Under the pieces are notes generated by a model. The model searched no databases. It saw only the letters and a list, made by a program, of their open reading frames with translations, and was not told the DNA's origin. This document shows, piece after piece, positions 10,779 to 64,000 of a stretch of 64,000 nucleotides of DNA; position 1 is the stretch's first letter, and each line of letters starts with the position of its first letter. This DNA is from Clavelina lepadiformis (Eukaryota > Chordata > Ascidiacea > Aplousobranchia > Clavelinidae), in assembly GCF_947623445.1 (NCBI RefSeq), contig NC_135240.1:9734001-9798000 (forward strand). The letters are read 5' to 3'. Position numbers and translations under genes: made by a program.

Positions 10779-10881
10779 TAGTATTTATAAAGTTATTAAC
10801 ATTTCATTCAAGTGGTGATTGTTGTTGACTTTGGGAAATTTGAAATTGTTTTGCTTCACTATTGTAGCAAGGCGCATCACA

Positions 10882-11550
10882 ATGTCACAAAGAGATGTTA
10901 TTGTGAAAAGAGCAGAAGCTCGAAGAAAAAAGCTTCTGATCAATTCGCAGTCTAGAATGCAAAGACTTCTTGGTGAAATTCCTGTGAAGGATGATGATAA
11001 TATTCCCAACCAACCCTTGCCTTCAGTAGAAGATGTCCAAATTAAGGAAGATCATTCTTATGTGGACACAAAATCAGAAGAGATTGTTGCTGAAAATATG
11101 TTCAACAAATCGGACATCTGTTCTGCAAAGATGATTCAAGATGGTGTTAGTTTTTTAAGTTCTACCCAAGACGAAGCCAAAGTTAATGATGATGGTTTAA
11201 GCTTCAAGCATGGTAACCAGTCGTCACTCTCTGCTATCACATTGTACAGTTGTGCTTTCTTTGCCATGCTACCATTTGTTTCTTCAAAATTTGGTTTTCA
11301 AGTTTCGTTTATAGCTGGATACTGCTTTGTGATATTAACTGCTACTGCTTATGATTGGTTTTACCGTAACGTAACAATGAAGAACACTTTCATTAATGCT
11401 GTAGTTAGACTTGTGTTACCTAGGCTAGGTATTGATGGAAATACCAGCAAATGGATAGGCCTGGCTTTTGCATTCATACAACAGATGGTACAGAGATTTC
11501 TTATTTATTCATTTTTCTTTTTTGCTATGCTTAAATTGATCGGTGAATGA
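10882..11550 (+). CDS. CAMLG: Calcium signal-modulating cyclophilin ligand (GET2-like)
   Basis: One open exon of 222 residues. The start chosen is MSQRDV rather than the upstream in-frame ATG at 10819, because a splice acceptor (CACTATTGTAG, ending 10867) lies between them. The N-terminal basic motif KRAEARRKKLLINSQSRM (about residues 9-26) matches CAMLG [20 protein letters not shown], the segment that contacts the GET3/TRC40 ATPase. A long acidic, variable linker follows, then three hydrophobic segments at about 116-138, 140-160 and 185-215, as in CAMLG. With WRB it forms the ER receptor for tail-anchored proteins. At 222 residues it is shorter than human (296), mainly in the linker. It sits between LYRM2 and GTF3C3 on the same strand, with 190 bp to the GTF3C3 ATG and no canonical AATAAA in the gap. 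Confidence 0.85.
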   Translation: MSQRDVIVKRAEARRKKLLINSQSRMQRLLGEIPVKDDDNIPNQPLPSVEDVQIKEDHSYVDTKSEEIVAENMFNKSDICSAKMIQDGVSFLSSTQDEAKVNDDGLSFKHGNQSSLSAITLYSCAFFAMLPFVSSKFGFQVSFIAGYCFVILTATAYDWFYRNVTMKNTFINAVVRLVLPRLGIDGNTSKWIGLAFAFIQQMVQRFLIYSFFFFAMLKLIGE

Positions 11551-36232: not shown

Positions 36233-44411
<8,179 letters not shown>

Positions 44412-50520: not shown

Positions 50521-53500
50521 TCAAACCGAACTTGTTGGGCTCGCAAGAAGTCTGTAAACACTGTCGATATCCGTATGTATAACGCCCAAGCCGTCCTGTA
50601 GCTCCCCTAACCGGCCATCTGAGAGCGGTGAAATTGAACCACTAGAAGGCGATGAGCGCACATGCTTCTGAAAAGCGTTTTCCACATTATTAACATAACT
50701 TTCGAGTTGGGTTAATCTTTCCGAGATGGAATCTTCTAATTTGTGGATGTGATGTAGAAGGTTGCCACGACAACGTAGAGTTATTTCTTCTTGGTAATCT
50801 TCCGGTTTGCGAACTCGACGACTTGGTCCTTGCAGCACCGGGCGCAGGGAGCGATTTATCTGCGTGAACAACAGATTAAGCGAGTCGATGCCAGACCATC
50901 ACTAAAATTGATTTGTTGTAACTTCTAATTGGCGTTAATTTTAATCAAGGAAAAACATGGCGTGCAACGATGGTATAAATTATGTGAAATTTCTTCTGAA
51001 ATTAATTCACAAATACCTCGATTGGTTTCCACAGATCCGTTTCTTCGGCGTCATGTCCGTTACTGAGAACAGTTTGCTCGTCATCGCAGATTCGCTTCTT
51101 TTCAATCGACTGTGTCGTTAAATCTATAAAATATTTAAGTAAAAAATTAGCGCTTTTCTTGAAAGTGCCAAGATAATCTTTGAAGTTTCGTTGTGGCTTT
51201 ACTTTGACATTTAAATGCGTAATCTGACGCGATGGCAGAAAGATGAGCAAAGACTTCGGGATTAAGGCAAGGTGCGGTTAGTCGATCGCTATTGCACCGA
51301 AAATAACACAAAGGTGTTTAAGTGCTTATGCAACGTACTCAACACCAATTCAGCCGAAGGTTTATGAATAATATATACTTTGAAAGCTTGGCCACAGTTT
51401 AACAACTGCTGTACAGTTTTTCGGAAATATGCGTGCTTTGTTAAAAAAAATACAACATAATTTACGCAGTATGGCGCCCAGTGTAAAACAATCTTCATGT
51501 ATTTCATGATTTTCTACTGAGAAATTTGGCTACGATCTATGATCGCATTTAAATACAAAACAAAATGTTATAATATAATAATGATACAATAAATAAACAA
51601 CACAATTCTCAGCAGAATATAACTACTTCACCGCTGAAAATTTACACTAAATAACAAAAATAAAACGTTCCCTTCAAGTTATGACCTGTTACCTCACCAA
51701 GTCACCCTTGCAACCATCCTGTTATTGTCATCTTACCAGTTTTTACGTCAACATCCATTTTTTCGCAGGACTTGTCACTGGCACTGTCACTCTTTTCATC
51801 GTCGCTTTTCTCAACATGTCTCCCTGAACGAAGGTAGGATGGAGATACCGCTTTGGCCGTGTCGGTGACTAGCGCATCAACTGTCTGGCGTACTACTGAC
51901 GAAACTGGACTGTCGGGCGATTTCGAAGCTTCTAATGGTGTGGAAATGAAATTACAAAGTACATGCAAGAACATTACGTTTGCCGGAGTGGCGGACAGTC
52001 AAGCTCGTTTTTACTTGCTATCTTGACAAAATAGTAACATGAGGGAAACGACGCACCTTGTTTCGAATCTGCTTGGATTATCCGGTCGCCATTGTTGGTC
52101 ATCGTCTCAGTTGTCACCTTGTCGTTTTCTTCCTGTTTTCCATCGAACACTGTCGCGCCATCCGCCAGGTTGGTCTCCTTCCACATGTGAAGCATCGGAT
52201 GATTCTTATCTGGGTTCGAGATGTCGATTTTGAGCTTGATGCTGTGAAGAGCTTCCTGCATCTTCATCAGTTCCTCCATCACTTGATGAGATGCCTGAAG
52301 GAGCGGAGTATTCAGACATAAGAGCGTGGACGTTATGTGCAAAACACGAACGAAAGGAGCCGGCACACGGCACGTACGCCGCTGCAAGCACGTGTCTGTA
52401 CACTTAATGTCACAAACGCATGGCTACCATGACGTCAAATTTGTCATACGTGGAGCATAGCCTGTATAATTGTAATAATACAATCGAAATATTGAGTCCT
52501 GTCCGTACACTACATGTTTATTCTATAAGCATATCGCGATTCGTAATTTCAGTTCAAGTTTCCATGTATACAGACAAAATCACATGGCGTCGCAGCGCAA
52601 GCTACCGTAAATTGTCAGAAGTGACGTTTTTCGTCCGAATCCCATCGAGTATACGGGCACTTCGACGGCTAAAATTTGGATTTCATTTCAACATTTCGAC
52701 TCACCATCATGATTTTTTCGAAATTCGTTTCTCTCTCTTGGTCTTTCTTACTTTTTTCTCCGTCACTCGAGTCGCTGTCCAACAGTGAAGGTAATTTCCC
52801 TTTCGTGAGAAAGTCGTTGTTGTAAAGGTATTTCTGTGACCTGAAAATGGATAATTGCTCGGTGTTATCACTGACCGGACATATTTCAAAACCAGTGCTT
52901 AGTATTAGAGATCTCGAAATTGGACGTTTTCATAACAAAACGCACTCTCTGCCACCAGGTGGATCGCGACAGATCTTGCAGATATAGTCAGGCTGTGTTG
53001 CATTCTCTGGGATTTTATCCTCCTCTGACGATCTCTGTGGAGAAAGGACTCCTTCGCATGCTCCATGTTGCCATGTGAGGCAAGCATCACATTGCATCAT
53101 GAAACCCTGTTCCTCTTCATCTCCACAAATGCAGCGTATCACGTCCTCATTGACAACTTCCACTTTCTTCTCTTCCGCATCCTCTCTTTCAACTTCTCTG
53201 CTCTGCTGCTCCTGATGCAGAAAAGAAGTTAGCTTCTTAAAGAGGAGAGTTTTTCTTTTTATCGATGTCATGCATGGGCGGTGGAAAAGAAGAAATCTCT
53301 TCTTTAGTGATTTTTACCAGAAAAATTTAAAACGTTTACCTTAACTATATTTCCTGCCTTGGATTCCGAAGCCGAATCGTAACTCTGCCTGCTTGCTCCA
53401 CTGTTGCTTCTTAACCGTCGCTTCCTGTGAAGTAGAACGATAAATGTTAAGATCAAAAAGAAAAGTTACAAATCGAGATGTATTTTGGATGAAACTTACT

Positions 53501-56500
53501 TTGTGGGAACCGACGTTCTATCCAGTGCAACGTAGGGTTCACCTGAAATAAACAAAGCAAATATTAACATGAAAGCAAAATCGCAGTTAAATCCTTTTCC
53601 AGAGTTTAAGCACTGACAAGTTAATACTCAAGAACAAAAGTTAACACTGCTTCGCAAGCCTGTTTATCTATTCACCAACTGCTAAACTGCGAGAAACAGA
53701 ATGATAAGAACGCAGTGTGTTATAAGAGTTCAATTACGCTAACCATATTTTCAAAAAGCTATGCTTATGTGTTATATATATTTCAGGTACGTCGGGATAG
53801 CACTTCCTGCGTTGGAAAAGTAAAATGCTTTTTCATAAAGATAATGCGGTGCGGTTGCTACCTCTCTTGAACTCATCCGGTGACAATAATGACTTGTCTT
53901 CAGCACTGCTGGTCTCATCCTGATTCGAAGAATGAAAAGAAGCATCAGCGCACTGCTGCTTCCGGTATACGTCAATCGGGGGTTTCCCTCCTCTGCTGCG
54001 CAGTGACCTTTCACTAGGGGGCGGGGTTGGGGTTTTTCTTTCGGTAGACTTCGGCGACGAGTAATAGTCGGACGAAACGCGGCGTTTTGCCGCACCTGTT
54101 GAGCAGAACGGCCACCGATTAGTGATTTCATTTATTTGATCTTTTGCATTTCAGCGCAACGTAATGGCATAGTCCGTACGCTGTCATCGCACCTATGTTT
54201 CAAACGCTTTAAGTGTTGCAACTATGTAATGATTACTTTACGATGTGTTCTTCACTGCACTTCAGACACTGCAAGTTGAAAAAAATAAAAAGCGAAACAT
54301 GTCTGTCACGAACATCTTTACCTCCTCCAATGACATCCTTTGATGTCCTTCTCTTTTGCGGAGGTTGCGTCTCCTGATCCCTCAGCTTATATCGCTGGAG
54401 GTGATAATGTTTGTGATGCTGCTTCAATGTTGCCTCCGTGCGGAACACTTTGTTGCATCCTGGAACGCGACACTGAAAACAAACGTCATAATCACATATG
54501 AAAAGCGTCATCAATAGGCTTCATTACGTGAGCAATGAAAACATATCGAACAAAATAGCAAAACATCCAATTTATGACAATTAAGGAACAAATTTAGCAA
54601 ACAAAGAAAAATGAACGCCATGTGCTTGGACGCTGTGTCTTATTTATAGTTTTGTTCACCTTGAATTTATGAAGTTCTGACTCTTGAATGAGTTTTGAAT
54701 AGTATGCCTCGTAGCTTTGATATGCTTTAGGCTGACCAAAAGCAGTTAGGGAGGGCTTGCCACCGATCGACTTGGAAGCACAAAGCTTAAAATCAAAAGA
54801 TACTTGGTTGTTGAACTCTCTGAATACTGAATGCATTGCAGTTGATTGACACTCGAAATATTCTCTATGTTAAAACTTACGGGTTCGTTTTTCACGATTT
54901 CTTCATTGCGCTTGTCAGCTTTGTTCGTTGCTTTATTACCATTCGTGGTTCTGTAAAAACGCGCACAAAACAGGTCACTTCTAAACGGTTTTCAGATTCT
55001 GAAATTGTCATGTGCTTTTAATTAAAAGGTAAACTGGAGCATTTTATACTGGGATTGCACCGGACATTTTGGCAGTGGCCCGATAAAGAAACTCGTCTGG
55101 TGATGATACGGAATGTTTGAAAGAGCAACTTTATTTTATGGCAATGCAATCCCACCTCCTTCTACTTTGGGTCATCCTCGGTTTGTCTTTCGGCGCAGCA
55201 TTAGGATCCCATTTTTTGAGCATTTCTTTTTTTAATGTTCTGGTCATACCATCGTAGTACTGAACGACAAATTGGCCTGTACAAAAAAGTCGGTTCAAGC
55301 CAGTTAAAACAACAATGTAGGCGGGCTGAGTGTATGTGAGTAAATTATCATGAGAAAATTTGTGTGGGAACAACTGTATAACCACCACGCACTGGAATAA
55401 AACTTACCATCGTCAACTTGATTTAATACAGTGGCCGGATAACTTCTGCAATCTGTCCAACGAGCCAACACAGTATCACCCTCGCTGAAGTCTTCTCCTT
55501 GCACCAAACTATTTGTGCCGCTTTCATCGGATTTAATTTTATCTGTTTCCCTGCTGCTCTGTGGTTTATCTGGGGCCTGGAAATACAAAACCCACTGACA
55601 AAACCCTGGATTGTGAACTTAGAATACTGATCTTTTTATCTCAAAGAGTCCCTACTTCCGTGTCATCACTAGCTGGTATCTCTTTGTTGTCCGCTGTTTT
55701 GATCTCGGTTTTGTCTTTATCGGTTGCAAGTTGATCATTCACTGGGGATTCTTCCGATGATATTGTTGAGCTTGTAGTTTGAGCAGTCTCTGATACTTTC
55801 TGGACTTTCTTTACGATCGGCTCTTTCGTTGTAACCTGGGTCACATGCGGAGGTGGTTTCCATGATGACAGCCAAGTGTGGTGAACGTTCTTCTTGCGAA
55901 GATCGTAATATTCGACGAGGTAATGATCTTTAAACAAGTAAACGTCATACAATGCCTTGAACTGTGAGAACCAATGCATGACAAGTACCTGTGTCTGTTT
56001 GCTTGAGTATTCTGGCCGGGTATAGCCGCCTGTCGGTCCATCTACAGAGAACTTGTTCTCCTTTCTTGTACTCAACCCGTTTTATTACGTACGTGCTTAG
56101 GACGGCATCTAGAGAAGAAGTTTTTTGTAAGAGACGTTATATCACAGGACCAAGGAAAATGATTTTAAAACTAGTCAAATGCATGTGGTAGACACATCGG
56201 CAACTCACCGCTGATAGAGGTGGTTCTGCTTCGTGTACTAAACTTTGTTCCTGCAAGAGTAATGTTGTATTTAACCTTTACAACAAAGTATGGTAGCTTC
56301 GATTAAACCAGGTGCATTGCAATACAAGCCAACGTAAGAAATAAAATATCTGGTCATTATACCACATCCAGAACGGTCAAAAAGAAAAACGGAAATGTCG
56401 GACCTTCACTTTGCGCAACGGTGTCCGATGTATAGCGTCTTCTATTTTCACTGGGGCTCTGCAAAGTGTGCCGACGTTTTGCCGCCATTATGCTTCCCAA

Positions 56501-59500
56501 TCCTTTAGTAGATTCAGTTTTCACGTCACAAGATTTGATCCTTGGTTTTATTTTGCCTGATGCAATATCAATAGCTTTAACTTCGAGAGATTCAGTGATT
56601 TTTGCCGAGGGCGTGACAGCTGCAAGCGGAACAGGAGCTACGTTTTTCCATGGTCGAAGAAAATCGTCGTTTACAACTTTTACGAGGCCGTCGTAATAAC
56701 GAATCTTGTAGGTTACTAAAACATGAATTGAAGCTGTGTGTTAAAAATAATATTGCTTATAAAGGTTGTGCAGATTTTCCACAAATTTTGTGTATTGACG
56801 ATGGTTAAGCACAATGGAAATGACAGCCAACCAACGAAAAAGTATGTGTAAAATAACGTTCAATGTAAATATTCGGTTTATTCATCTTGCCAGGATTGCT
56901 AGGAAACGGGTCATAATGAAAGTAATATTGGTGAATGAACTTACCTGCGTCTATGCGTTTCAAAACAGTAGCGGAATAGAGCTTGCAGTCAGACCATTTC
57001 GCCAGCACCAAGTCTCCTTTTTTGTAGTGATACTTCGGACCAGCTTGTGACGCAACACGTTGCTCTTAAACAAAAAATGCGATTAGTTAAGCTTTTCAGT
57101 AGAAAGGTATCGTGACAACTGACAAGCATTAATACAATGCCCCACTTAAAGTGCTTGGATCTGTTATCCATACCTTTATCCATAGGAAAACAGCGTTGCA
57201 CTTCAAATTTTAATAAATAAACAACAACATACCCGGCACTGATGGTTCACTTTGACTTAAACTAATTCGAGTCCTGGTTCCACTTCGTGACTTCTTCATC
57301 TCAGCTAGTTGTTTCGCTGTTTCAGCATCTGACTTGGGTTCGTTTTGAAGATCCTCCGTTTTGTCTTCGGATTCGAGACCTGTTGAATACAAGCACAGAG
57401 TGTTTAGAGTAATATGTGTTTAGTAAATAGTCAAAAACTACGGACACCTTCAGCTACTTTTCTAAAGAAAAGCCTTGCCCAAAGTACAGAACACATTTCA
57501 TTGAGAGTGTTTGAAAACTTAAGTGCTAAGGTTGCACCGACTTTTATCGCTTTCTGATTCCATATAGCTGGAGTTCATCGATGCTTCATCAACATCTTGT
57601 GCCATTCTTTCGTTCTCTTCAACATGCAGGAGTGGTTTGCTGCTCTTACTCTTGTTTCGCTTCTCTGTAAATACACACAAGGTTATTAATAGTGTTACAT
57701 GCAGGATTAGAATTTGAAATTTTTTTTAAGTACCTCTGCTTGCTTTTGTCGATTCTGGCATTGGACTGTACAGCTTTGTCAGTTCAAAGCACATCTGTTT
57801 AATTCAATGATATTCTTTATATTTTTAGAACATTTAGTTTGTAAAATTCAATTATTTTGCGTGGCTACAAAGTGTTTGTAACCATGTGAGTGACAACTAA
57901 CAAACAACCCGTCTATGGATTTATCAACATTACCTTGATTGTTGATGGTGTAGCAACTTTTAGAAATTCTTGTTTGAAGCAGTTGGCAAAAGCGTGTGTA
58001 GAGACTTGTTTTCCACTATTTTCAACCATGAATTTTGTAAACTGCAAGAGGTTTAAAGCAGTACTTAAATTTTACTAAAACGGACACAATATTATCGCCA
58101 ACCAAAGTTAACAAACAAATAAGGGGGAGGGGATATACTGTTACTAACCACAGATTTCTTCCACTGAATTCTTAATCGGCCAAACAGCTTTTGATCTGGA
58201 TGCTGCACAAAATGAGCAGCGGATGGCAAGAACCTACAATACAAAAAGCATTACTTTAACCATGGAAAATCATGTAAACTTTAAAATCTTGCGTATCCAT
58301 GTGTCTTACCTAAAAAGAATAATTTTGTTGTGTTCTGCAAAGTTTAGAGTTGCAAAATCAAGCATTTCTAATGGAGAATCAACAAGCAGGGCCAGCGGCC
58401 GTTTTTTGGTTGAAATCTTCTTCAAAAAACAGTTTTTCAGCCAGTACAAAAACATACCAGAGTTGCTAAGGCCTTGGCTTGTGAATCCAATTGAGTTCGT
58501 GAAAAGCTTATCTTGTGATATTTTAGTGCCAATGTTGTCTGAAAATAACGTGAAAATAGTAGCGCGCAAATTATAGGGTCAATAATAGATTTGCCTTGTC
58601 ACGAAAAAAGTTTCCCAACAAAAGATGTAAACAAAATGAATAATATTTTTTCTTATTGCAGGGAACTAACCTGGGAAGATGTGAACCGGAGAAGTGACTG
58701 AGCCATCAGCACCAACGCATGTCAAAGTGGTGATTTTTGAACTGGATGAAATGTTGTTGAGTGCAATAGACTTGTGTGAAAACTGAACATTGTGCAAAGG
58801 ACCTTGGGTTGTATCCCATACTGTTTCATCACAATAATATACAGCGTTGGGTACTACATTAGCCGATTGCACAGTAGATAGCCATCTGCTGAGCCAATCT
58901 TGAAATCCATTTCGATCAAGCTGAAACCGAGACAACGGTTGTTCTCGTCCAGGAAATATTTCAGGATGCCTTTCAAGAAATTCTAAGTTTGAAATATAAA
59001 AGGCTTTAGTAAGATACATGTATGACTTTATGGAGTTAAAAATGACTGCAACTGTGTTGTTTCAATTTCAAAATTATAAGTAAGTTGTACGTGACAAATT
59101 GCTCAAAATCAAGCAGCTGCTTACCTTCTATCCACTTTTCTGAAGGCTGGTTTATGGGTAAGTCATCATCAAACATAACCGAATATGCTTCGTGAGATAG
59201 AAATGATTTTATTTTAAGAGAGATTTGCAAACAGTCAATACCCCAACCATAATCAGTCATGTCATGAATCCAATTGACAATGTTGTCTTCATTCATGGTG
59301 CTCATAAACAATGTCTCACTTGATGCAACGATCATGTTTGCCTTACTACTCACATGTTCCCTCAGTTTACTTATGTTCACGTCAAGCTTTTCCACCACCT
59401 AATGGATAAGAAAGTGACCATAACTTAACATCGGTTTGATGAGAAAATTTATTTAAATTTTAAGCTTACAGTTTTGAGGCTGATATCCTCTTTCAAATAT

Positions 59501-62500
59501 TGTTGAAATCCAGCATCTAGTCGCTCAGGGAGTACCATAGTTTTGGGATCAATTGCTTAAAAAGTAAGTTTTTTATTATTATTCCTACATGGAAAATAAC
59601 TTATGATGAAATATTAATTGGTAGAAATGTAGATAAAAATATTGAAAGCCATTATTTCACCCCGAGTAGATCATGTAGCCCGTTGTTAAAGATAGTTTAG
59701 GAGAATTGGTATGTAAAAAATGCTTTTTGTTGTTTGGAGTTTAATAGAAGTTAGATTTATATTAAAAGATAGATTTAGGTTGAGTTTATTGAACTGCTGT
59801 ATGTTGTCACTTTTAAGTTTAGTTACCAACTAACTGCCAAAAATAGCATCGAATGTACAAATTTCTTCCAGGAAAATAGCGACAGGCTAAAATATTACCT
59901 TTCAGAGTAGTTTCTTTTAAATTATCCAAGGCAACTGCAAATAACGTAGATTCTGCTTCATATGCTGAAGATGTGATTGGTGCAGTATTTCCAGAGGCAA
60001 CAGTGGATGTTGACTGTGACAATTGTAGCAGGGCTTCTCCGGCTTCTTGTCTTGTTGAGCTGCAAGTAAAATAACAGAGTTTAAATACGGGCAACTAAAC
60101 TGAATTCCATACCAAATAAATCTTTTGTTTTACTTTGCAAAGCTATAAATTTATACCATGGGGTGTTAGATGTTGCTTTTTCGCTCATTTCTGCTTTTTT
60201 TATATTCTCAAGCATGTCCTCTTGGACGGCTACACTGTTATAAATAAACAATAGATTAATCCAGAATCTGATAAAACTGAAAAAAGCTTATTAGTAGATA
60301 CTTCACCTTGAAACGTTAGCATCCTCATTTGAAATCTGAGAACCTGCAAGTGATAAAATATCATATTATATTTTGAAGAACAGTACAAAAGTTTTGCAAT
60401 TTCTGTGCTATTTATATTACGATTACCTGTTGTTTTAGTAATGTTGGTTGTTTTCTTTTTTTTTCTAGATGATGGCACTGCGAGCAAAACACAAGCAATA
60501 TCAGTTTAAGTACATATATTCACAGTCAAACAGAACACTGAGAAACATAACTAGTGCAAATGGATACAAAAATTGATGTGTTAGTCCAACTACAAAATAT
60601 GATAGATTTGTTAACAACCACGTAGTTGACAGAAATCTTGAGCAAAATTAATACTAGTTCAACAACAGTAGCTTTGTTACGACTTGTGCTACTTCAACAT
60701 ATTTAAAGGTGGAAGCAGCATTTTGTAATCTCACCTGATGTTCCGTGCTTTTTCATGACAGGCTTGCTATCACCATCCTCTGTAGCATATAAAAAGTATT
60801 ACTTTTTTCGAGTAATAAAGGTTGTTAAAAAGAGTAACACATTAACCTTTTACAGAATTTTATTTAGATTTTCCACAGTATTGAGCTTATCTCACCACAA
60901 ACATTATAGTGTCAAGTGGTATTTTGTAAAATGAAATATAAAATTATATCTTACCGTCAATAATAAGTGGACTATCAGAGTCATCACTTGAGCTCATGTT
61001 CACAATATCTTTTTCTTCACCAACTTCATCAGTTGTAATGCTATGCATTGGTGCACTGCAATAGGAAAATATTTATTTTAACATGACTATATAACGTAAC
61101 AATTTAATAATGAAAACAGCGTAAAAAGACCAGTGGTGGGTTTCAACTGGTTTGCAGCAGTTTATGCGGACCATGCATTAAAACGTTGTTAAAAAGAAAA
61201 CTTTTATTGTTTGATGGTGGCTGTTGCTAATGAGAAAACATTAGAGAGTCAGTTGCTTGAAGCTTTAAATATTCCTACTAAGTGTTATCTCCGTACCAAG
61301 CACATTTAACTACCTGGTAAAACTCAAGTTTGTTGTTGCTGGAGAAAAGCTAGAAGTTGACTGTGTTGAAACAGTTGTAGTTGTTGATGCAATTGTGGTG
61401 ACAGCTTTATCAAGAAGAGTGCCGGTGATCTTATCAAGTCTAGCCTGCTTCGCCTGGAAGTTCCCTGTCTGTGTGGGAGATGTTGTACGAACAGGGGATG
61501 TTGTGGTGCTAGTAGGAGTAGCTGTTTCTTCTATTTTACGTTTTCTGGCTTTTCGAGTAGAAGCTGGTGAGGCATAGTTTGCAGAGCCGTCTGGAGCAGG
61601 AAACAATAAAAAAACTGGAGTTAAACATTCTAACGCTAGGAAACAGAAATAACAAAAGTATGTTTTAAATCTAAAAGACGCAGATATTACAATACAAAAG
61701 TAATGGCTTTAAAACAATAATTTCTAACCTTTCCGTGCAGCAATACGTTTTTCTCTGTCATTTGCTGAAGTTTTGTAACGCCTGTAACTGGAGTTTTTAG
61801 CAATTGTGGTTGCTTGCTGCGGCGAGTCAACGGGGCGGGTGGATAACGACATGAGATAGGTAGTTTGAGCAGTTTTCATCGCAGCATCCTGCAAAATTAA
61901 ATAAATTACGAAGTAATGTACGGTAATGTCTTAAGTAGGTACGATAAAACAGATCACTTTCTTTCTCCTAAACTAAGACTAAGTGTTATTGTTTTTGCTT
62001 TTAGGGGATGAATACAATCACATGAACTTCTTCTGCAAGTTTAAACAAATTCAGGGTCCGGGACATGGCTGTTCCTACATAAGATGTTTATTTAAGCTAA
62101 TCAGCGAAACATCGAACAAAATTTCAGAACTGAAAATGGGTCAAAAAAGCACCAGAATTTCCGGAATTTATTTATTGTAAACCAATATTTTTAGACGGAT
62201 AGCTTAACTTTAAAAAAGCAATTCCAGTATTGAGACACCTAATAGTGATAATATTCATACGATTTTAGCTACAGGTCATATTTTATGGAAGCGCATTAAG
62301 ACTTCTGCATGTATTGACAGGCTTACCTTTTCCTTTTCTGTCATTTTTTTCAGTAGATTCGGGCGAACCACCTTTTTCAATCCATCGTAATACATGACAA
62401 CGTAAGAGCCAGTCTCTTTGATACTTAAAACTGTGCCTGGATAAAAGTTTCCATCTGACCATTGGGACAGAACATCATCACCAACATTGAACTTCTACAT

Positions 62501-64000
62501 AGTTCAAAAAAAATTAATATGGAGTTTTTATGCCAAAAATAACAACTCATAAATTTTTGTGGTTTAAATACAAAACAATGTCAAACGATCAAGATAAGTT
62601 TGTTAGCTTTTTGATGAAATGTTTGTCATGATTTAAGCAATTATAACTTTGGTAGGGTTGAGCTAGACTTTGCATACCAAGTGGTTGCGATAAAAGCCAC
62701 AAAAGAAGGTATAAACATTTTACTAAAAAAGCGCTAACATATTTCGAACAACATTTGTTCTTTATCAAAGCTGCAATGAGTTACAGTAGTTGATTATCGG
62801 TTTAAGTACTCTACAACGTTATATTAAAAGAAGAAGGGAACAAAATAAATAAGAAAAATGAGCTATCAGCATGCAGAAGACAAAGATAATAGCAGGAAAA
62901 CAATGAGCCTATAACGATTCATGGGACATGGTAGTCAAACAAAAACTACATGTAAAACAATAAACCGCATGGTGCAGACATGACAGGATGTTGTACACTT
63001 AACCAATTAATTTTACCTGCACATCAACTTTCTTTTCGACAGTAGTTGAGCCGCGAATAAGATTGCTCGACATAGGAAAAAGAGTATCAAATCGCTTTCC
63101 CCAACCATTAAAATGAACCAAAACTTCCTGCTTGTCTTCATAAACCTGTGATATAAATATTGGCTGTTGCAATAGTTATCATGCAAGTCTGGTCATAGTA
63201 ATGAATTAGGATATACCTCAACAATTTTTGCTTTATACCACTTAGAACAGTCCATAGCTTCAATATTTGCTCCTTCCTCAAATTTGATCTCTTCCAAAGG
63301 TACAGCATCAGCAGGCACCATCGATTTTCTATTTGCACCTGGAGTGGTTACCTTAAGACAAAACAGTAATAAAATTTATTATCTTTGAAACATACCGACC
63401 GTGTACTCACTTGGGTTGAAACAAAATATCAGCAGTGTTTGTATTGCTATACTTACAGCTAATGGTTTCTTTTTTACTAGACTCTTTGGCTTTGTACTGT
63501 CTGTCGCAACAGTAGGAGTAACTGGTTTGCTCTTCTTTGTAATTGCAGGTGTAGTGCTAGAAGATATTGTGCCGTCGGTTATGTGGCCAGTTTCTGATTG
63601 GTCAGTTTGTTTAGTGTTTTCGGACATGTTTGATAAATCAACTTCAGATGTAGATGACGAAACTTTTGACTTTGCAGCTTTAAACAGAGTACTCGAAAGC
63701 TTCAAACTTCCAAGTGATTTCCTTCCCCTTGATTTTCGAGCTGCTGATTTAACAGACTTAGGCGAGAGGCTTGGGGATCTTGTCTTCAATGTTTGAGCTG
63801 CTGCTTTTCTCCTGCCATCCTCTGTTCGAGAGCGATAGTGTTTGGCACTTCTTCCACCACTATCAGAAGATCTATCCTTGACTGATGATGACTGAGTGCT
63901 ATCCAAAGTAGGAAGAGTTTTTTTATTATCTTTCTTCTGGGGTGATTTTGGAAGTGAAACATCACTTTGAGTCGAGTCTTTGTCTCTTGCGTTGCTTTTG
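50521..64000 (-). CDS. PHF20-like Tudor/C2H2/PHD protein with embedded pogo DDE domain (5' partial)
   Basis: Forty exons: 64000-63457, 63351-63217, 63145-63017, 62494-62327, 61888-61729, 61590-61314, 61055-60955, 60779-60735, 60477-60427, 60343-60307, 60234-60157, 60059-59899, 59555-59470, 59398-59125, 58982-58671, 58538-58310, 58233-58149, 58041-57934, 57794-57734, 57664-57542, 57379-57233, 57064-56945, 56715-56404, 56250-56209, 56108-55989, 55927-55656, 55576-55408, 55276-55156, 54950-54881, 54785-54660, 54472-54322, 54095-53862, 53542-53500, 53424-53340, 53211-52946, 52840-52705, 52294-52057, 51931-51737, 51123-51017, 50859-50521. All phases match, giving 2151 residues from the edge; only the 57542 donor (GTCGGT) is weak. 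Order: basic start; Tudor 1 (about 193-265, [20 protein letters not shown]); Tudor 2 (270-325, [16 protein letters not shown]); Ser/Thr-rich linker; CENP-B HTH and DDE region (658-1013); Tudors 3-5 (about 1115, 1272, 1415 on); C2H2 [11 protein letters not shown] (1555); [23 protein letters not shown] (1742-1806); a PHF20 segment with [20 protein letters not shown] and a helical C-terminus. PHF20 is a methyl-lysine reader of NSL/MOF acetyltransferase complexes; the same role here is inference. The 5' end lies beyond the window. Confidence 0.85.
57934..59398 (-). other. Exonised pogo/CENP-B-type transposase region
   Basis: Five exons within the PHF20-like gene. Exon 59398-59125 ends in a CENP-B-type helix-turn-helix ([16 protein letters not shown]), completed in the next exon by EKWIE and [20 protein letters not shown], which fits the W...FLKRHPE signature. 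Then comes a DDE_1 fold: [11 protein letters not shown] (first Asp, usual form IYNxDETG), [31 protein letters not shown] (second Asp, usual LLLDNHxSH), and [16 protein letters not shown] (third Asp, usual LQPLDVGVFGPLK). The C-terminal helix continues into exon 57794-57734. Three Asp positions are kept while the neighbouring Asn and His are replaced. Pogo elements usually lack introns, so the split structure and loss of inverted repeats point to an old domesticated domain. Confidence 0.8.
62327..63351 (-). other. N-terminal tandem Tudor pair of the PHF20-like gene
   Basis: Three exons encode the two Tudor domains that open PHF20/PHF20L1. Tudor 1 is split at [21 protein letters not shown], matching human NWYPAHIEDIDYEEGKVLIHF. 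Tudor 2 is a single exon with [19 protein letters not shown] and [16 protein letters not shown], matching NEQVLACWSDCRFYPAKV and TYTVKFYDGVVQTV. Tudor 2 keeps the aromatic WSD..FYP and YYDG positions of a methyl-lysine pocket. Confidence 0.85.

What the first reader, a model, noticed from the sequence alone, without database searches (positions are those of the whole stretch)
50521..64000. PHF20-like chromatin reader that has captured a pogo transposase in mid-protein
Seen: one minus-strand chain of 40 exons whose phases match, with PHF20-type Tudor domains at one end, C2H2 and PHD fingers at the other, and a CENP-B HTH plus DDE_1 fold between them. Known: PHF20 and PHF20L1 have Tudor, C2H2 and PHD domains but no transposase part; pogo-derived genes (CENPB, JRK, POGZ, TIGD) are known domestications. 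Inference: a host-transposase fusion that could join sequence-specific DNA binding or a DDE scaffold to methyl-lysine reading. I know of no such architecture.
Basis: partly seen in the sequence, partly recalled or inferred. Interest (0 to 1): 0.92.

Follow-up and report, generated by a model that had tools for sequence, protein, structure and literature searches.

The report
Transposase gene lodged inside sea-squirt PHF20
In what is very likely a sea squirt, an old transposase gene that now has introns sits, intact and in the same direction, inside the gene for a chromatin-reading protein; it may give that protein an alternative end, but only RNA can show whether the two are truly joined.

Summary
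The sequence observation largely holds. The genome is very likely Clavelina lepadiformis (contig lengths). The host is a single-copy PHF20 relative; its full chain is 43 exons, 66634-50521 minus strand. Between host exons 12 and 21 lies a complete pogo-type transposase over eight exons (59555-57519): psq-like HTH, CENP-B-type HTH, DDE with an intact DD35D triad. No close copy (at most 30% identity) and no terminal repeats were found; it looks domesticated.

The 'mid-protein fusion' is not established. The 42 codons it drops look coding: 0 of 1,668 open non-coding windows score as high. So the transposase frame most likely ends at its own stop. Four paths stay in frame: plain PHF20, Tudor1-2-pogo ending at TAA, and two through-fusions. 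The best-supported reading is an alternative 3' end like CSB-PGBD3; a nested separate gene (own ATG, 59538) and a mid-protein fusion remain open. The DNA-binding part is acidic (net -10; +3 to +10 in 7 relatives), which speaks against kept DNA binding.

The parts
63457..64000 (-). host exon 1 of the window (runs on to 64047 in L009); Lys/Ser-rich linker
   Evidence: its 5' part and three more upstream exons (66634-64582) lie outside the window
63017..63351 (-). host exons 2-3: PHF20-type Tudor 1 (MBT-like)
   Evidence: PHF20L1 and PHF20 Tudor 1 structures, E 2.1e-7 to 1.4e-6
62327..62494 (-). host exon 4: PHF20-type Tudor 2; of the three cage positions W and Y are unchanged, F is Y
59899..60059 (-). 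host exon 12, last exon before the transposase block, donor phase 1
57519..59555 (-). pogo-type transposase block, reader exons 13-20, 433 codons from acceptor 59555 to TAA 57519
59536..59538 (-). candidate own start codon ATG (A at -3, G at +4), 17 nt inside exon 13
59125..59398 (-). exon 14: rest of psq-like HTH and most of the CENP-B-type HTH
   Evidence: net charge
58671..58982 (-). exon 15: end of HTH, first catalytic Asp (D172 of block)
58310..58538 (-). exon 16: second catalytic Asp (D278 of block)
58149..58233 (-). exon 17: third catalytic Asp (D314 of block), 35 residues after the second
57734..58041 (-). exons 18-19 (58041-57934, 57794-57734): end of transposase homology; exon 19 donor phase 1
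57233..57379 (-). host exon 21, acceptor phase 1 (fits exon 12, exon 19 and the 15-nt exon 20)
55156..57064 (-). host exons 22-28: three further Tudor domains (Tudors 3-5)
52946..54770 (-). host exons 30-35: C2H2 finger and PHD finger
50521..52294 (-). host exons 37-40: C-terminal region, ending in TGA
   Evidence: the last exon has no Pfam family above cut-off

Best explanation
A pogo transposase gene inserted long ago, in the same direction, into an intron of the PHF20 gene and was domesticated. Its exons act as an alternative 3' end: host exons up to exon 12 splice to exon 13, giving a protein of 1,183 residues with Tudor 1, Tudor 2 and a transposase (HTH-HTH-DDE) end that stops at TAA 57519, while skipping the block (exon 12 to 21) gives plain PHF20 of 1,842 residues. 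In human PHF20, Tudor 2 is needed for chromatin binding and the C-terminus for joining the NSL acetyltransferase complex, so the short form should bind chromatin but not NSL; it would act as a competitor, or bring a DDE scaffold and its partners to PHF20 sites. Shown: host identity by sequence, transposase homology, open frame and intact triad, frame-compatible splice sites, coding-like tail with stop, acidic DNA-binding region. Inferred: use of the junctions, both isoforms, domestication, and the function.
For: Exon 12 donor and exon 13 acceptor share phase 1 and path D reads to TAA without a stop. The tail 57649-57519 scores 0.58 bits per codon in its frame, 0.05 and 0.09 in the other two; of 30,228 overlapping non-coding windows 1,668 are open and 0 reach it, and of 5,000 dinucleotide shuffles 364 are open and 4 reach it. 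Host exons 12 and 21 join in frame without the block, and the host C-terminal half is single copy, so plain PHF20 must come from here if it exists. The block has no close copy and keeps DD35D. CSB-PGBD3 is the precedent: acceptor 7 nt upstream of the transposase Met, in frame with host exon 5 (passages of PMC2268245); here 17 nt. NSL and chromatin roles: PMC8867114 sections 6-7.
Against: No transcript was seen. No AATAAA or ATTAAA lies in the 139 nt between TAA and the next host exon, only the weak variants AATGAA and ACTAAA; the next ATTAAA is at 57214, behind exon 21; PGBD3 by contrast has a poly(A) site about 130 nt after its stop. The host's own end has its first AATAAA 338 nt after the stop, so this is weak. 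Intron 12 holds two AATAAA and one ATTAAA, which could end transcripts before the block (introns hold 18 AATAAA in 9,415 nt). The exon 13 acceptor is poor (2.9 bits, 22% of host acceptors lower), and a better one at 59584 (6.8) runs into a stop when joined to exon 12. The block has its own ATG in a good context. The highest control window for the tail (introns, other strand) reached 0.53, and the score favours the host's own Lys/Ser/Glu-rich make-up.
Confidence: 0.44

Rival explanations
1. The transposase is a separate nested gene of 427 codons with its own start (ATG 59538) and stop (TAA 57519), lying in an intron of PHF20 and expressed from its own promoter or released by spliced-leader trans-splicing; no fusion protein is made.
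For: The ATG stands just before the first HTH with A at -3 and G at +4; the frame ends at its own TAA with a coding-like tail; the better acceptor 59584 fits only a 5' UTR or trans-splice site, since joined to exon 12 it meets a stop; intron 12 holds poly(A)-like hexamers.
Against: Exon 13 begins with an acceptor in the host's phase and exon 19 ends in the phase of exon 21, which a separate gene does not need; but 15 of 34 host donors are phase 1, so two such matches would come by chance about 1 time in 5. Intron 12 has only 343 nt at 28% GC; no canonical poly(A) signal close behind the stop.
Confidence: 0.28
2. True mid-protein fusion: host exons run through the block into exon 21, either skipping exon 20 (exon 19 to 21, 2,227 aa) or using only its first 15 nt (2,232 aa), giving Tudors-pogo-Tudors-C2H2-PHD in one protein.
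For: Both paths are in frame with no stop; exons 13-19 make up exactly 385 codons, ending about where transposase homology ends; the 15-nt exon's donor is usable (5.5 bits, in the best 6.1% of GT sites on that strand).
Against: It discards a tail that looks coding and has its own stop; the donor is weaker than 71% of host donors; a 15-nt exon is rare (recalled).
Confidence: 0.22
3. A decayed transposon copy in an intron, with the exons an artefact of choosing open pieces.
For: Single-exon Pfam scans found nothing; transposase exons 14-18 score low for coding (-0.12 to 0.09 bits per codon, against 0.24-0.77 for host exons), and in exons 17 and 19 another frame scores as well or better; the exon 15 acceptor is very weak (-0.3 bits).
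Against: 427 codons with no stop and AG/GT borders; the large exons rarely stay open in shuffles (1, 9 and 20 of 1,000 for exons 14, 15, 16; but 115 to 296 of 1,000 for the four small ones); triad intact; no close copies and no terminal repeats.
Confidence: 0.06

Closest known systems
CSB-PGBD3 (piggyBac transposase in intron 5 of human CSB)
   Same: Transposase in the host's intron in the same direction, acceptor just before its Met and in frame with the upstream host exon, own stop codon; host is a chromatin protein; host exons on both sides still join (passages of PMC2268245).
   Different: piggyBac, one transposase exon, proven transcripts and protein, repeat ends and poly(A) site still present; here pogo, eight exons, no RNA evidence, no terminal repeats found, no canonical poly(A) signal close by.
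POGZ and POGK (pogo/Passer-derived vertebrate genes)
   Same: Pogo transposase joined to host domains; POGZ is also DD35D (PMC7386202 Table 1).
   Different: Host parts are zinc fingers or KRAB; Tudor or PHD are not listed as partners in that table; descent from Passer was not tested here.
PHF20 / PHF20L1
   Same: Tudor 1, Tudor 2, C2H2, PHD in this order; sequence matches to solved domains of these proteins.
   Different: Three more Tudor domains, a longer N-terminus, and the transposase block.
CENPB, JRK, TIGD family
   Same: CENP-B-type HTH plus DDE_1 domesticated from pogo (PMC7386202).
   Different: Stand-alone genes; in that table TIGD2, TIGD6, TIGD7 and CENPBD1 have changed the third Asp and four genes carry a question mark; here the triad is whole but the HTH region is acidic.

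Membership tests
PHF20 family | tandem N-terminal Tudor 1 (MBT-like) and Tudor 2 | tested here: met
   11 of 18 matched PDB sequences are named PHF20 or PHF20L1; 2 more (2ldm, 3p8d) bear other names but nearly the same letters as PHF20 Tudor 2 (from recall); 5 are other proteins, with weaker E
PHF20 family | C2H2 finger followed by PHD finger | tested here: met
   PHD: PHF20 5tab E 4.9e-9, though ASH1L ranks first at 1.6e-10; C2H2 only E 0.032 in Pfam, below cut-off, its Cys and His seen directly
PHF20 family | orthology shown by a tree with other animals | not testable with these tools
   the genome search holds only prokaryotes and this genome
pogo transposase / DDE_1 | DDE_1 domain above Pfam gathering score | tested here: not met
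   21.3 bits against 22, E 2.1e-4; 8 of 8 members of alignment A1, block included, match DDE_1 at E up to 0.05
pogo transposase / DDE_1 | alignment over HTH and DDE to pogo-type transposases | tested here: met
   block 23-360 aligns to L019 and 25-360 to L015 at 24-25% identity, E 2e-18 to 4e-18 in a set of 18 frames of which 6 were then on the wrong strand; whole-genome E 1.7e-16; profile E 2.4e-41
pogo transposase / DDE_1 | D-D-D triad with pogo spacing | tested here: met
   D172, D278, D314; 35 residues between the last two, as in 10 of 10 relatives, of which 7 keep all three Asp
pogo transposase / DDE_1 | basic DNA-binding region | tested here: not met
   net -10 against +3 to +10 in 7 of 7 relatives that cover it; 3 of 10 left out as too short
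live pogo transposon | terminal inverted repeats and several copies | tested here: not met
   one 14-nt pair, 86% complementary, its arms at 57889 and 59811, between the two ends of the block rather than at them both (shorter or worn ends would be missed); no match above 30% identity outside the block
host-transposase fusion (CSB-PGBD3 kind) | in-frame splice from host exon into transposase | tested here: inconclusive
   frame and sites fit; no transcript data

The most novel reading that the evidence does not exclude
A single-copy animal PHF20 in which a whole, catalytically intact-looking pogo transposase is spliced in as a 385-codon cassette (exons 13-19, exon 20 skipped) between Tudor 2 and three extra Tudors, making one 2,227-residue reader-transposase protein of the NSL complex, with inclusion of exon 20 switching to a truncated Tudor-pogo form.
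Probability: 0.2. Interest if true: 0.8.

Novelty: new variant of a known kind. Interest (0 to 1): 0.52.

Why it matters
If the junctions are used, this would be a pogo version of the CSB-PGBD3 arrangement, in a tunicate and in the gene for a subunit of the NSL histone acetyltransferase complex. It would give a natural test of what a transposase scaffold adds to a methyl-lysine reader, and of how a terminal exon trap can gain introns. Even if the transposase is only a nested gene, it is an intron-rich pogo domestication without close copies, with a whole triad and an acidified DNA-binding region.

Tried and rejected
Single-exon Pfam scans of three transposase frames found nothing; the spliced block was needed. 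A PDB sequence search with the block alone found only chance matches to sperm channel subunits (E 0.69 and 0.78); with the profile of block plus 7 relatives the only match at E up to 0.01 was the LCoR HTH (E 2.8e-5), not CENP-B. NCBIfam, a prokaryote library, gave nothing. Terminal repeats: none convincing. Alternative in-frame donors in exon 20: two phase-1 GT sites, 57649 (5.5 bits) and 57541 (3.7). Poly(A) signals did not settle the matter. No other animal genome could be searched, so orthology, dating and Ka/Ks were out of reach.

In print: six searches of the open library (PHF20+pogo, 6 of 6 listed, domesticated/pogo/tunicate/transposase, 20 of 122, host-transposase fusion/pogo/alternative splicing, 15 of 866, PHF20/ascidian/Tudor/PHD finger, 12 of 53, transposase capture/transcription factors/fusion, 10 of 87,814, Tudor domain/transposase domain/fusion gene/pogo, 10 of 10) listed no PHF20-pogo or Tudor-pogo gene by title or abstract start; the rest of the lists was not seen and most subscription papers are missing. 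One search looked for Clavelina transcriptome papers. Papers, what I saw: PMC10884593, PMC2268245, PMC5899321 passages; PMC7386202 passages and section 9; PMC8867114 abstract and sections 6-7; PMC13285377 abstract. From recall, from no call: tunicate spliced-leader trans-splicing; the rarity of 15-nt exons; that pogo transposases start just before the first HTH (visible also).

Full report
Where it is. The window is C1:9734001-9798000 of a 209 Mb genome. The lengths of the six contigs seen (C1 28.784, C2 26.530, C3 25.735, C4 25.071, C6 20.772, C7 20.449 Mb) agree within 0.01 Mb with chromosomes 1, 2, 3, 4, 6 and 7 of Clavelina lepadiformis kaClaLepa1.1 in Table 2 of PMC10884593 (that assembly has 210.1 Mb in 102 scaffolds, against 209.06 Mb in 95 contigs here). 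The identification is an inference from these lengths.

The host gene. I rebuilt the exon chain by hand and checked it by script. Tudor 1 and Tudor 2 match PHF20 and PHF20L1 structures, the fifth Tudor matches PHF20L1 best (2.8e-12), and the PHD matches ASH1L (1.6e-10) and PHF20 (4.9e-9). Three further Tudors follow the transposase (three stretches for Tudor_2 and for Tudor_3). In all four Tudor-2-type domains the W and Y of the cage named in PMC8867114 are kept and the F is Y (the matching of positions is mine). The C-terminal half is single copy: of 53 matches in the genome 6 are this gene and the other 47 have E of 0.01 or more.

The transposase block. Exons 13-20 encode 433 codons to TAA. 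Pfam alone is marginal: DDE_1 E 2.1e-4 just under its cut-off, HTH_Tnp_Tc5 E 0.047. Against this genome 61 matches were listed; 8 are the block itself, the best of the other 53 has E 1.7e-16 at 25% identity, and none exceeds 30%. A profile from 8 relatives, block left out, gives E 2.4e-41; the best of 999 shuffles gives 0.076. The alignment covers psq-like HTH, CENP-B-type HTH and DDE. The triad is D172-D278-D314 with 35 residues between the last two; the spacing is 35 in 10 of 10 relatives and 7 of 10 keep all three residues. POGZ is also DD35D (PMC7386202 Table 1), so an intact triad is not unusual. No convincing terminal repeats were found. Several relatives (such as L015, L021, L023, L028) hold HTH to DDE in one open frame of 620 to 750 codons, whereas the block has seven introns.

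The DNA-binding part. Over block residues 10-140 the net charge is -10; in the 7 relatives that cover this stretch it is +3 to +10 (3 of 10 were left out because they cover less than 70%). This is crude, but it speaks against kept DNA binding of the old kind.

Does the block join the host? Exon 12 ends in phase 1, exon 13 starts in phase 1, exon 19 ends in phase 1, exon 21 starts in phase 1. Four paths stay in frame: A, with the 15-nt exon, 2,232 aa; B, exon 19 to 21, 2,227 aa; C, exon 12 to 21, 1,842 aa; D, exon 20 read to its TAA, 1,183 aa. Of 30,228 overlapping windows in host introns and upstream DNA (L009 2700-10000, taken as non-coding without annotation), both strands, 1,668 are open and none reaches this score; the highest is 0.53 (introns, other strand). 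The introns also served as the background of the score; L009 did not. Of 5,000 dinucleotide shuffles 364 are open and 4 reach it. The donor needed for A is usable but below 71% of host donors (weights from 28 host donors and 27 host acceptors). So exon 20 is most likely a real last exon of the transposase frame. B remains open, since exon 20 may be skipped.

Results against an active coding block: transposase exons 14-18 score only -0.12 to 0.09 bits per codon, in exons 17 and 19 another frame scores as well or better, and the exon 15 acceptor scores -0.3. The low scores may reflect the different make-up of a folded domain, but this was not tested.

Fusion or nested gene? For fusion: two phase matches that a nested gene does not need (about 1 in 5 by chance, as 15 of 34 host donors are phase 1), and a short AT-rich upstream intron (343 nt, 28% GC). 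For a nested gene: an ATG in good context 17 nt inside exon 13, a better acceptor at 59584 that meets a stop if joined to exon 12, and two AATAAA and one ATTAAA in intron 12. Poly(A) signals behind the block do not decide: none canonical for 139 nt after TAA, ATTAAA at 57214; the host's end has AATAAA only after 338 nt.

Mechanism. In human cells Tudor 2 of PHF20 is needed for chromatin binding and the C-terminus for NSL binding (PMC8867114 sections 6 and 7); the tandem Tudors of PHF20L1 bind DNA of nucleosomes strongly (abstract of PMC13285377). Path D keeps the Tudors and replaces the NSL-binding end by a transposase. The likeliest effect is a chromatin-bound competitor or an adaptor with new partners, as CSB-PGBD3 keeps the N-terminus of CSB (passages of PMC2268245). 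This is inference.

Verdict. Real, domesticated-looking, and interesting, but the headline claim of a mid-protein capture is one of several in-frame outcomes and not the most likely. RNA reads already in public archives can decide it.

Noticed in passing
57064-55156: Three extra PHF20-type Tudor domains (Tudors 3-5) follow the block, five Tudors in all; whether this expansion is shared by other tunicates was not testable.
   Followed up: partly
L009:1-2634 (window coordinates 64001-66634): Three further 5' exons encode a short N-terminal region (106 codons) with no Pfam family above cut-off (best E 0.089).
   Followed up: partly
L015:1318-3177, L021:1141-3054: Pogo-type frames of this genome end in a weak PHD-finger-like stretch (3 of 8 members of A1 at E up to 0.05, best 0.0092; these two at E 0.04, below cut-off).
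   Followed up: no
38377-38790 minus: A frame with a weak Ion_trans_2 match (E 0.0016, 18.7 bits against 22.5), possibly a two-pore potassium channel (recalled), followed by an open frame of 487 codons without Pfam match (36947-38410 minus).
   Followed up: partly
10819-11550 plus: A 243-codon frame with a Get2_like match at its cut-off (E 2.1e-5, 25.2 bits).
   Followed up: no
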